Made by a program: the position numbers and the translations under genes. This document shows positions 36,122 to 42,148 of a DNA stretch of 64,000 nt, piece after piece; the stretch's first letter is position 1; each line of letters opens with the position of its first letter. The stretch covers positions 62,001 to 126,000 of the forward strand of contig NC_010644.1 in the NCBI RefSeq assembly GCF_000020145.1. Direction: 5' to 3'. The notes under the pieces were generated by a model. It ran no database searches, was not told the DNA's origin, and was given only the letters and a program-made list of their open reading frames with translations. Source of the stretch: Elusimicrobium minutum Pei191. GTDB lineage: Bacteria; Elusimicrobiota; Elusimicrobia; Elusimicrobiales; Elusimicrobiaceae.

Positions 36122-36631
36122 ATGAAAAATGGCTTTACTTTGATAGAGCTTTTAGTTGTGGTTTTAATAATAGGCATATTAGCCGCGATAGCTTTACCGC
36201 AATATAATAAAGCTGTTGAAAAGAGCAGAGCTTCGGAAGCTCTTTTAATTTTAAAGTCTTTGCATCAGGCTCAAAAAATATATTTCATGCAGACGGGGAC
36301 GTTTACTTCAAATTTAGATAACCTTGACATTGAAATATCAGGCGCGTCAGATAAAAACATGGGGTCGGTTGGTATAGTAGGCAAACAAACAAAATATTTT
36401 GTTTTTTACACTAACTTTGACGCTAACGGAGCCACTGGCCTGGGAGCTAGAAGAATAGACGCCACCGGCGCTACCTTATACGCTTTTAATATCGGGGAAT
36501 CTTCGAAAGACGATCTTTTCAGGTGCTGTTATATGCAGGAAAAATATAAAGACGTTTGTAATGTTATGGGGTTTAATACAACCGCTTCCGCGTCATATTT
36601 TTCAGGTTCATTGGGTTGTTTTTACCAATAG
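36122..36631 (+). CDS. Type IV pilin-like protein
   Basis: 169 residues starting MKNG|FTLIE with a helix to AIALPQYNKAV; Glu5 and the prepilin peptidase site are intact. The C-terminal region has CC-x9-C (RCCYMQEKYKDVCNV), in the place where the other three carry C-x12-C. It lies 22 bp behind obgE on the same strand and is preceded by AAAGAGGTAAT, so it may be expressed from the obgE transcript. Pilus role unknown. Confidence 0.86.
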   Translation: MKNGFTLIELLVVVLIIGILAAIALPQYNKAVEKSRASEALLILKSLHQAQKIYFMQTGTFTSNLDNLDIEISGASDKNMGSVGIVGKQTKYFVFYTNFDANGATGLGARRIDATGATLYAFNIGESSKDDLFRCCYMQEKYKDVCNVMGFNTTASASYFSGSLGCFYQ

Positions 36632-38986: not shown

Positions 38987-39478
38987 TTAAATTTTTACGG
39001 CATAGTAATTCCAGCTGGCACTGCTTTCGTTCGGGGTTGAACTGCCGAAGGATTTGCAAATTTTGTTTGCCGTTGCGTTAGAAGTTGCGGCCGCGCAGGC
39101 GAAAGAGTTTTTTATTGAATGAATATTTTCATAGTGGGCAATAACAAGCTCGCCTGTTATTTTTCTGGCGGCGGGGCCTTGGTCCCAAAGCTCATAATAG
39201 TAATTTTTGTCTTTTATTTTTTCATAAGGTTCAGTGGTTGAGGAAGAGTATTTGTCCCCTGGAACTCCGATATCTAAATCATCAAACGTTTTTGGCTTTT
39301 CCCCTGTTGCCAGTTGATATCGGTCCGACGCGTCCTTTATAGCTTTAACCATAATAAAAGCCTGCGACGCGCGCGATTTTTCAACCGCAATTTGGTATTG
39401 TGGCAAGGCGATAGCGGCTAATATGCCTATTATTAAAACCACAACCAAAAGTTCTATTAACGTAAACCCTTTTTTCAT
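38987..39478 (-). CDS. Type IV pilin-like protein
   Basis: 163 residues starting MKKG|FTLIE with a helix to AIALPQYQIAVEKSRAS. The cysteine pair C-AAATSNATANKI-C near the C-terminus is nearly the same as in the gene at 3939. The mid-region (DLDIGVPGDKYSS) shares a D(L)DIGVP motif with that gene (SLDIGVPAQSKYFS). The two are therefore close paralogues about 35 kb apart. Monocistronic. Confidence 0.87.
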   Translation of the reverse strand: MKKGFTLIELLVVVLIIGILAAIALPQYQIAVEKSRASQAFIMVKAIKDASDRYQLATGEKPKTFDDLDIGVPGDKYSSSTTEPYEKIKDKNYYYELWDQGPAARKITGELVIAHYENIHSIKNSFACAAATSNATANKICKSFGSSTPNESSASWNYYAVKI

Positions 39479-39954: not shown

Positions 39955-40024
39955 AAAACCTTTTTTATGGTTAATTTGGTAAAGTCTGTCTGTGTTGCCC
40001 GTTAATTTATCTTTGTGTATTAAA

Positions 40025-40057
40025 ATAAAGCCCCGGATTTTCCGGGGCTTTATTTTT
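40025..40057. terminator. Bidirectional intrinsic terminator
   Basis: AATAAAGCCCCGGA, a short loop, then TCCGGGGCTTTATTTTT between msrC and the convergent exported protein gene. Confidence 0.88.
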
Positions 40058-41030
40058 ACAATCCTAAAGCTTCTTTAATTCTGGTTTCAACATCTTCTGT
40101 AAGTTTGTCTTTGTGTTTAAGAGGTATTTTAAACAGTGCGTCATTAGGTACGCTGTTTTTTCTTCTTAATTGATAAGCAATGCCGCTTTCCACGGGAATT
40201 ACAAGTATTTCAGCTTCTATAAAATATTTATTTACAAATTTTGCATTTGTAAGCTGTTGTATTTTTACGGCTACGGATTTTGGTATGAAGGTGGCGTCGT
40301 CATTGTTTAACAAGCGCGGGCTGTATTGCACAAGCATCAAAACCGGCCTGCCTATTTTATTTATTGTAAAAATTCCGCCGCCTTTTAATATGCCTGAAAA
40401 ACCTTCAATATAACAATATTCAACATCTAAAAAATTAACATAGCATTTAAGTTTGCGTTTGGCGGTATTTCCAGTAACAACGCGGGTCTTTTTATCTTTT
40501 GGGGAAAGAAATTGTTTTAGTTCAGCGTCGCTTTTAAATAACATTATAGACGGGTTGTACGCTTTATTTAACTGCGTTTTAAAATCCTCGGGAATATTCC
40601 AATTTGAAAAATTTAAAAGAGCGAAATCCTGTCTTCTGTCATCTTCTTTTGATAAAAGAATTTGCCCGAAATCCTGCACGTTTTCATCCTGTTTTTTTAT
40701 TTTCGGGTTAAATGTAGCGATGGCGGATTTCTTTTGGTGTATTATACGGATGTTTTTAAGATAATTATTATGTTTTTTTCCTTTTAAAAGGGTAAATTCG
40801 GAATTTCCTTTGGGAAGGCAGGATTTTCTTGTTAAAATCCAGTTTTTGTCAATTATAACGCCATCGCACCTTGTTTCTATGGCCGGGGTATTATCTGTCT
40901 TTGAATCCTTGTAATGGTTAAAATATAATGATACGGTGGCTTGTTTTATAAGAAAATTTGTATTTTGCGCGGCCGCTGGCAAAGCGCATGCGGCAAGCGA
41001 AACTAAAAGCAACATTAATGGGTTCTTCAT
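40056..41030 (-). CDS. Exported degenerate trypsin-like protein (paralogue A)
   Basis: 324 residues from the ATG ending at 41030, which follows GGAG; a signal peptide (LMLLLVSLAACALPAAA) comes next. CDGVIIDKNWILTRKSC (residues 55-71) has the spacing of the chymotrypsin His loop (CGGxxI...WxLTAAHC), but the His position is Lys. RRQDFALLNF at about 132-141 matches the catalytic Asp strand. No GDSGGP is present. It is therefore probably a non-catalytic protease-fold protein in the periplasm, or its function depends on other residues. The next gene upstream is a paralogue in the same orientation. Confidence 0.65.
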   Translation of the reverse strand: MKNPLMLLLVSLAACALPAAAQNTNFLIKQATVSLYFNHYKDSKTDNTPAIETRCDGVIIDKNWILTRKSCLPKGNSEFTLLKGKKHNNYLKNIRIIHQKKSAIATFNPKIKKQDENVQDFGQILLSKEDDRRQDFALLNFSNWNIPEDFKTQLNKAYNPSIMLFKSDAELKQFLSPKDKKTRVVTGNTAKRKLKCYVNFLDVEYCYIEGFSGILKGGGIFTINKIGRPVLMLVQYSPRLLNNDDATFIPKSVAVKIQQLTNAKFVNKYFIEAEILVIPVESGIAYQLRRKNSVPNDALFKIPLKHKDKLTEDVETRIKEALGL

Positions 41031-41084
41031 AAACATCTCCTTAGGTAACTGCATTTATAATATTACGGTTAAACCCATATAAAA

Positions 41085-41130
41085 AAAGGGTCAAAAGACC
41101 TATTTGTAATATAGGTCTTTTGCCTTTTTT
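41085..41130 (-). terminator. Hairpin between the two paralogues
   Basis: AAAAGACCTAT, a short loop, then ATAGGTCTTTT, flanked by AAAGG and CCTTTTTT. It lies after paralogue B on the minus strand, so the two genes are probably separate transcripts. Confidence 0.75.
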
Positions 41131-41137
41131 ACAAAAA

Positions 41138-42148
41138 CTAATTATCATTTATCAAATTAGAAATTTTCTTTTTTATTTGCTTAAAGGTATTTTCATTTTG
41201 CTTTTTCATTTTTTCAAAATCAGCTTTTCTATATCCAGGTTTGGGAATTAGAAAGAAAGAAGGTTCTCCGTTTTCTTTTACAAAAGCTTTCTCTATAGCT
41301 ATAGGAGTAAACTCGTTGTCTACTAGGTTTAATGTGGCGGGCTGTATGGATGTCTGTATTTTATAAATAATATTTTTAGGGATAAAAGTTGATTCATCTT
41401 TTTTATCGTAAGACATTAAAAGCATAACGGGGGTTTGTTTGTGAGGGTTTTTTATATATAAGGCGGCCCCGTTTTTTACGCTGACCCCGCCTTGCGTATA
41501 AAAATATTGGCTTATCCCTCGGCTTTCGATTTTTTTGCCTTTACCGCTTGTTTTACCATGATAGAACAAATTAACCGAGTCCCCTTTGCCGGAAAAGAAA
41601 AAGTAGTGCGCGTGGTCTGCTGAAGGGAAAACCATAATTTGGGCAGGGACAGCTTTTTCTAGATGTTCTTTAAAATCTTTTGACAAAGGCCATTTGCTTA
41701 AATCAATTATGATAAAATCCTCTGTTGGGGAGTCGGCATTGAATCTGTATACAATTCCCAAAGGCTGTTGTTTTTTATATAGTTTGCTTCTATGGTCAAA
41801 AAAATCTTTTACATCAAAATTTATGGTCGTTTTTTTGCCGTTATTTTCTATTTCGGCGTAAGCCATATAATCGTGCCGGGTTACAAGGGGTTTTTTTGAT
41901 ATTCTTCCCGTTCCGCCCGGAAAACAGGAACTTCGGGTAAGCATTATATTTTTTGCGATTATCACTCCGTCGCAGCTAAAAAGCTTTGATGAATACCTTG
42001 GGTCAGGCTCGGCGGTTACTTTTATAAGTCCGCCAGCGTGGTTAATTTTAAATTTTACATGAGCGGAATTAATTTTATCCGTAAAATCATTTGCAAAAAT
42101 ATTTGCCGCTAAAGCTAAAACAGTTGCCATTATAAGAATTTTTCGCAT
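41138..42148 (-). CDS. Exported degenerate trypsin-like protein (paralogue B)
   Basis: 336 residues from the ATG ending at 42148, behind AGAGGCGG. The signal peptide is MATVLALAANIFA. CDGVIIAKNIMLTRSSC (residues 59-75) keeps the same 15-residue cysteine spacing as paralogue A and again lacks the His. EDFIIIDLSKW corresponds to the Asp strand. The block STFIPKNIIYKIQ matches ATFIPKSVAVKIQ in paralogue A. No catalytic Ser motif. The pair arose by tandem duplication and has diverged strongly. Function unknown. Confidence 0.65.
   Translation of the reverse strand: MRKILIMATVLALAANIFANDFTDKINSAHVKFKINHAGGLIKVTAEPDPRYSSKLFSCDGVIIAKNIMLTRSSCFPGGTGRISKKPLVTRHDYMAYAEIENNGKKTTINFDVKDFFDHRSKLYKKQQPLGIVYRFNADSPTEDFIIIDLSKWPLSKDFKEHLEKAVPAQIMVFPSADHAHYFFFSGKGDSVNLFYHGKTSGKGKKIESRGISQYFYTQGGVSVKNGAALYIKNPHKQTPVMLLMSYDKKDESTFIPKNIIYKIQTSIQPATLNLVDNEFTPIAIEKAFVKENGEPSFFLIPKPGYRKADFEKMKKQNENTFKQIKKKISNLINDN

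What the first reader, a model, noticed from the sequence alone, without database searches (positions are those of the whole stretch)
40056..42148. Tandem exported trypsin-fold proteins without the catalytic His and Ser
Both paralogues keep the C-x15-C His loop (LTRKSC, LTRSSC) and an Asp strand, but lack His in the loop and any GDSGG motif. Two separate, strongly diverged copies, each with its own signal peptide, suggest a selected non-enzymatic function such as binding host or prey proteins, or an altered mechanism.
Basis: partly seen in the sequence, partly recalled or inferred. Interest (0 to 1): 0.52.

Follow-up and report, generated by a model that had tools for sequence, protein, structure and literature searches.

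The report
Exported protease look-alikes lacking catalytic histidine
A small gut bacterium carries two neighbouring genes for exported proteins that descend from a trypsin-like enzyme but have lost a part essential for cutting, so they probably bind other proteins instead; similar "dead enzymes" are already known, and what these two do is untested.

Summary
The two genes are real: P1 (about 324 aa) and P2 (336 aa), 27% identical, each with a signal-like N-terminus. They derive from an exported trypsin-like (S1) family found in 87 of 90 Elusimicrobiaceae genomes at E 0.01 (84 of 90 at E below 1e-17). The genome is probably Elusimicrobium minutum (recalled); intact members lie elsewhere in its chromosome.

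All 124 profile-found relatives that cover the site keep the catalytic His. P1 and P2 both have Ser there and share five derived His-loop residues, so the loss most likely predates their duplication. Asp is kept. P1 has GFSG and P2 GVSV, in remodelled loops whose register I could not settle.

No orthologue appeared in 294 phylum genomes. AlphaFold was poor (mean pLDDT 49 and 51); mainly the first barrel resembles chymotrypsin folds. P2 is tied to the family through P1 only.

Best reading: a lineage-specific pair of inactive serine-protease homologues kept for non-catalytic binding. Bacterial precedents exist (MamO; 42 putative inactive homologues among 966 serine proteases of five families). 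New member of a known kind; function untested.

The parts
40056..41030 (-). P1, exported inactive S1 homologue, 324 aa (332 aa if the ATG at 41054 is used)
   Evidence: ORF and start; family profile 33.2 bits against at most 4.1 in 400 shuffles
41138..42148 (-). P2, paralogue of P1, 336 aa
   Evidence: ORF; 27% identity to P1, E 9e-23; on its own not above shuffles against the family
40968..41030 (-). P1 signal-like segment; holds an LAAC stretch that could be a lipobox
   Evidence: read by eye
42092..42148 (-). P2 signal-like segment
   Evidence: read by eye
40818..40868 (-). P1 His loop C-x15-C, His57 position is Ser
   Evidence: 120 of 120 aligned relatives have His
41924..41974 (-). P2 His loop C-x15-C, His57 position is Ser
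40626..40628 (-). P1 retained Asp (D143, Asp102 position)
   Evidence: 120 of 120 relatives have Asp
41717..41719 (-). P2 retained Asp (D144, Asp102 position)
40374..40403 (-). P1 remodelled Ser loop GFSGILKGGG; position 195 is Lys224 or Ser220
   Evidence: alignment scan, register not settled
41462..41491 (-). P2 remodelled Ser loop GGVSVKNGAA; position 195 unsettled (Ser, Asn or gap)
41092..41122 (.). terminator-like hairpin between P2 and P1
   Evidence: the region holds 4 such sites against 3.1 expected in shuffles, so weak

Best explanation
P1 and P2 are a lineage-specific pair of exported, catalytically inactive homologues of an Elusimicrobiaceae S1 (trypsin-like) protease family. An ancestral copy lost the catalytic His (His57 to Ser) and had its Ser/oxyanion loop remodelled; it then duplicated, and the copies diverged to 27% identity while staying open and exported. 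They most likely act by binding through the former substrate face and loops: either modulating or titrating the intact exported paralogues, or binding protease inhibitors or other proteins in the gut. Shown here: descent (P1 directly, P2 through P1), loss of His, a shared derived His loop, open frames, intact paralogues in the same genome. Inferred: lack of proteolysis, export, a binding function and its target.
For: Family profile without P1/P2 hits P1 at 33.2 bits, shuffles at most 4.1; profile-profile match over the N-terminal 113 columns, probability 94.8%, E 5e-8; co-linear C-terminal match above 200 of 200 column shuffles. All 124 of 124 profile-found relatives that cover the site keep His. 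Five His-loop columns that are at least 94% invariant in the family carry the same new residues in P1 and P2 (D, G, I, R, S), and the tree joins the pair with SH-aLRT 99. Intact members in the same genome: L046/L090 and L027. Free-running frames of this length and composition would be open with probability 2.6e-11 and 1.5e-11. Precedents: MamO and inactive homologues in other prokaryotes.
Against: A Ser remains in the loop of both (GFSG, GVSV) and may still be the nucleophile. P2 has no significant match to the family on its own. The second half is poorly modelled and its sequence match is weak outside the profile-profile control. No orthologue was found, so constraint cannot be measured. Their branches are very long (2.8-3.0 changes per column) and P1's composition is unusual, so the tree position is unsure. 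No partner, expression or export data.
Confidence: 0.6

Rival explanations
1. They are still hydrolases with an altered mechanism: the loop Ser (P1 GFSG, P2 GVSV) is the nucleophile and something other than His57 (a nearby Lys, the substrate, or Ser57 with Asp102) assists.
For: Asp kept and the same new Ser at position 57 in both; a Ser in the loop of both; for P2 a Ser register scores best with all three profiles, for P1 it is close behind Lys224.
Against: The register is not settled and the joint alignment favours Lys in P1 and Asn in P2 with two of three profiles; the GxSG-[SG]-G context is broken in both; 124 of 124 covering relatives keep His.
Confidence: 0.08
2. They are decaying copies without function that have not yet been interrupted.
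For: Long branches; absent from all relatives searched; catalytic loops degraded.
Against: Both frames open over 324 and 336 codons at a path of 5.8 changes per column between them; signal-like segments and the Cys pair kept in both; codon-position G+C and codon use like neighbours. The open-frame odds assume the copies have long run free, which is itself inferred.
Confidence: 0.12
3. Only the first barrel is trypsin-like, and the C-terminal half is a different domain fused to it.
For: Single-sequence and HMM matches cover only about the first 160 residues; model confidence falls below 50 in most of the second half; a plain HMM search of the C-terminal halves is not significant.
Against: Global profile-profile score 19.5 against a maximum of 13.9 in 200 column shuffles and 6.0 for the reversed pair; predicted strands and a helix after the Ser loop come in the order expected of the second barrel (low confidence); V8- and Esp-like chains align over residues 2-255 of the second model.
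Confidence: 0.12

Closest known systems
Elusimicrobiaceae exported S1 family found here (own-genome members L046:1351-2406 and L027:1159-1851)
   Same: Signal-like N-terminus, C-x15-C loop, W-x-[LI/F]-T strand, D-x-A-L motif, similar length; own profile matches P1
   Different: Relatives keep His57 and G-x-S-G-[SG]-G and mostly two further Cys after the His loop, which P1 and P2 lack
MamO of magnetotactic bacteria (PMC4794232; outline, abstract and passages seen)
   Same: Bacterial trypsin-fold pseudoprotease that sits beside an active relative; duplication followed by loss of the triad
   Different: MamO is HtrA-like with a TauE transporter domain, keeps His and has Thr for Ser, and its metal-binding role is shown; P1 and P2 are short exported proteins that lack His
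Inactive serine-protease homologues of prokaryotes in the survey PMC2605481 (passages seen)
   Same: Serine-protease relatives with substituted catalytic residues: 42 among 966 proteins of five families in 91 genomes
   Different: That count covers five families, not S1 alone; the survey's list was not seen and this phylum's genomes were not checked in it
Haptoglobin and insect serine-protease homologues (recalled; haptoglobin chains appear)
   Same: Trypsin-fold proteins without a working triad that act by binding
   Different: Animal proteins; no closer sequence link than the fold; function of P1 and P2 unknown

Membership tests
Pfam Trypsin (PF00089) | Score at or above the gathering cut-off (20.6 bits) | tested here: not met
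   P1 16.3 bits, P2 no match; six intact relatives pass, 26.0-44.3 bits
Exported S1 family of Elusimicrobiaceae (this report) | Homology to the family | tested here: met
   P1 33.2 bits against at most 4.1 in 400 shuffles; P2 only through P1; C-terminal half above 200 column shuffles
Exported S1 family of Elusimicrobiaceae (this report) | Catalytic His | tested here: not met
   Ser in P1 and P2; His in 124 of 124 covering relatives
Exported S1 family of Elusimicrobiaceae (this report) | Catalytic Asp | tested here: met
   D143 and D144; 120 of 120 aligned relatives
Exported S1 family of Elusimicrobiaceae (this report) | Catalytic Ser in GxSG | tested here: inconclusive
   Lys224 or Ser220 in P1; Ser, Asn or gap in P2
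Chymotrypsin fold | Two beta-barrels | tested here: inconclusive
   Low-confidence models of P1 only; 50 of 50 and 49 of 50 listed VIA-align rows are chymotrypsin-fold chains by title, Z 4.8-6.4; Foldseek best E 0.0055
Inactive serine-protease homologue (pseudoprotease) | Lacks or substitutes a residue essential for catalysis | tested here: met
   His57 to Ser in both
Inactive serine-protease homologue (pseudoprotease) | No proteolytic activity and a non-catalytic function | not testable with these tools
   needs biochemistry
MamO | TauE transporter domain after the protease domain | tested here: not met
   Pfam scan shows no such domain in P1 or P2

The most novel reading that the evidence does not exclude
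A trypsin scaffold re-wired for other chemistry: both paralogues keep Asp102, share a new Ser at position 57 and keep a loop Ser with a Lys two to four residues further on. They could be a His-free Ser/Lys-type hydrolase or acyl-binding protein on the S1 fold.
Probability: 0.05. Interest if true: 0.75.

Novelty: new member of a known kind. Interest (0 to 1): 0.32.

Why it matters
If the reading holds, this is a clear natural case of an exported bacterial protease family in which every covering relative sampled keeps the catalytic His while one lineage kept a duplicated pair that lost it. Intact paralogues in the same genome give a built-in control, and E. minutum is in culture (recalled), so the role of an inactive homologue could be tested. 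Neither the pair nor the exported family turned up in my paper searches (open PMC library only).

Tried and rejected
Orthologues: only the own genome matched among 60 relatives (P2), and among 294 phylum genomes (pair profile, E 0.001). Among 90 family genomes (E 0.1) 12 others gave weak hits (E 0.002 to 0.09), at least some of which are intact family members. Viral contigs: none. Plasmids: none (P1 only). Metagenomes could not be scanned. The two same-genus genomes are incomplete (G001 66%, G002 88%), so absence there is not firm. At dnaK, six relatives had no P1/P2-like gene in the fetched flank, but the G002 contig ends about 650 bases past dnaK; the fRMsr-like gene of G002 is followed by a pilin-like gene.

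Mobile or defence gene: no PADLOC match, PHROG matches only at E 0.11, ordinary codon use (P2 rank 15, P1 rank 38 of 41 window ORFs, higher being more typical).

'Shared Ser-Lys swap' (Lys at position 195 in both): I entertained this and rejected it, since the ungapped pair alignment gives Lys in P1 but Asn in P2 and other registers place a Ser there.

A pair profile found no PDB chain. dN/dS was not attempted: no orthologue, and the pair is saturated.

Survey limits: loci L114-L172 were fetched by patterns demanding WFxTAAHC or GxSG motifs and were left out of the count; they are included. The list was cut, and I fetched 100 of its stretches besides loci. A relative as degenerate as P1 could escape the profile. 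The 87 of 90 tally includes three genomes with only weak matches (E 0.0016 to 0.008).

Full report
What is there. The window lies in a single-contig genome of 1,643,562 bases, which I take to be Elusimicrobium minutum Pei191 (by recall of size and content; one search confirms only that such a strain is in the taxonomy). Two minus-strand genes follow dnaK: P2 (41138-42148), then P1 (40056-41030, or from 41054). Beyond P1 lies a convergent gene that I take for a free-methionine-R-sulfoxide reductase, by recall. A terminator-like hairpin follows dnaK and another lies between P2 and P1, but the region as a whole has 4 such sites against 3.1 expected and 11 promoter-like sites against 8.6, so this is weak. 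An inverted repeat after P1 (about 40024-40057) was read by eye and was not reported by the scan.

Relation to each other and to trypsins. P1 and P2 are 27% identical. Pfam sees a sub-threshold Trypsin match in P1 (16.3 of 20.6 bits) and a sub-threshold DUF1986 match (18.8 of 25.2), and nothing in P2. NCBIfam and PADLOC give nothing, PHROGs only E 0.11.

The family behind them. The Pfam Trypsin model and a P1/P2 profile, run on relatives, led to exported-looking proteins of mostly 230-380 aa with C-[QH]-A..W-F-x-T-A-A-H-C, D-x-A-L and G-x-S-G-[SG]-G. A 23-row profile finds a member in 87 of 90 Elusimicrobiaceae genomes at E 0.01; 84 of 90 have one at E below 1e-17. P1 and P2 are among the rows, so their own hits are by construction. 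The own genome has an intact 352-aa member; its neighbourhood is conserved in two same-genus genomes, and in all three it follows a pilin-like gene. A second intact member of 231 aa lies elsewhere. Six relatives tested pass the Pfam Trypsin cut-off.

How firmly the pair belongs. A profile of 102 homologous proteins without P1 and P2 (it includes some sister-family and unrelated-phylum trypsins) gives P1 33.2 bits; 400 shuffled sequences reach 4.1. P2 gets 4.2 and so rests on P1. BLAST of P1 against 149 family proteins gives at best E 3e-7 over 155 N-terminal residues; P2's best is E 0.13. Pair profile against 15 relatives: probability 94.8% over 113 N-terminal columns. For the C-terminal halves, a plain HMM search is not significant and hhalign's own probability is 8-9%; yet the global score of 19.5 exceeds all 200 column shuffles (mean 3.3, sd 2.4, maximum 13.9) and the reversed pair (6.0), and the local score of 23.1 just exceeds the shuffle maximum of 22.4.

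The active site. In an alignment of 120 relatives (pattern-selected loci included), position 57 is His in 120, position 102 Asp in 120, position 195 Ser in 119 with one gap. In the profile-found set, free of motif selection, 124 of 125 proteins have the His and 122 of 125 the Ser; the exceptions are one C-terminal piece and three pieces that end before the Ser. P1 and P2 have Ser at 57 and keep the Asp. At five His-loop columns at least 94% invariant in the family they share the same new residues D, G, I, R and S, which places the loss before the duplication. The tree joins them (SH-aLRT 99) on a stem of 2.9 with tips of 2.8 and 3.0 changes per column; treekit warns that such long rows are placed unsurely and that P1's composition is odd.

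The Ser. Absence of GDSGG says nothing here: none of the 125 profile-found proteins contains GDSG. P1 reads YIEGFSGILKGGGIF, P2 YTQGGVSVKNGAALY. Forcing each residue onto position 195 against three profiles: P1's best is Lys224 each time (62.1, 41.7, 56.6 half-bits), with Ser220 at 56.1, 35.2 and 56.4. P2's best is the Ser of GVSV in two profiles and an upstream Ser (residue 213) in the whole-family one. Jointly the pair gives Lys and Asn in two profiles and a Gly/Ala register in the third. The loop is remodelled in both; whether a nucleophile survives is open.

Structure. Two AlphaFold runs of P1 with 37 and 39 rows gave mean pLDDT 48.9 and 50.5. First-barrel strands reach 84 with loops down to 37; most of the second half is below 50. 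Foldseek's best E is 0.0055 with none at or below 0.001. The tool warns that Z under 8 can be unspecific, and the alignment rows are themselves trypsin-like, so this supports the fold without proving it.

Selection. No orthologue was found, so dN/dS was not possible. Free-running sequences of that composition would stay open over 324 and 336 codons with probability 2.6e-11 and 1.5e-11; this assumes a long time since the loss. Codon-position G+C and codon use resemble neighbours. Retention is therefore likely, the function unknown.

What it works like. MamO (PMC4794232; outline, abstract and passages seen) has a degenerate site, activates a relative's proteolysis and binds metal, and the paper reports repeated duplication with loss of the triad. 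A survey of 91 prokaryotic genomes counts 42 putative inactive homologues among 966 serine proteases of five families (PMC2605481; passages seen). P1 and P2 fit this pattern. I commit to non-catalytic binding, with modulation of related proteases or of their inhibitors as the likeliest target class, at about one chance in three for that class.

Novelty. The kind is known. The pair and the exported family were not found in my paper searches, which cover open PMC papers only; the genome paper of E. minutum (recalled) was not seen.

Noticed in passing
L090:7016-8595, L088:7649-9187, L089:8274-9815: In the own genome and two same-genus genomes the intact 337-352 aa family protease directly follows a pilin-like gene.
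   Followed up: partly
L086:7833-9760, L087:7780-9680, L032/L049, L114:2021-3921: In another genus of the family the intact proteases come as adjacent pairs, overlapping or a few bases apart, suggesting repeated tandem duplication in this family.
   Followed up: partly
L119:2252-3001, L120:2261-2998, L121:2267-3001: Short (245-250 aa) intact members sit just upstream of longer ones; like P1 and P2 they lack the mid-protein insert (about 45 residues).
   Followed up: partly
L176 (G022:C106:2528-4621): One family gene is split into two frames in this genome; real decay or assembly error.
   Followed up: no
36122-36631 (+), 38987-39478 (-): Two pilin-like genes with near-identical N-termini (GFTLIELLVVVLIIGILAAIALPQY) lie within 4 kb of the pair.
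   Followed up: no
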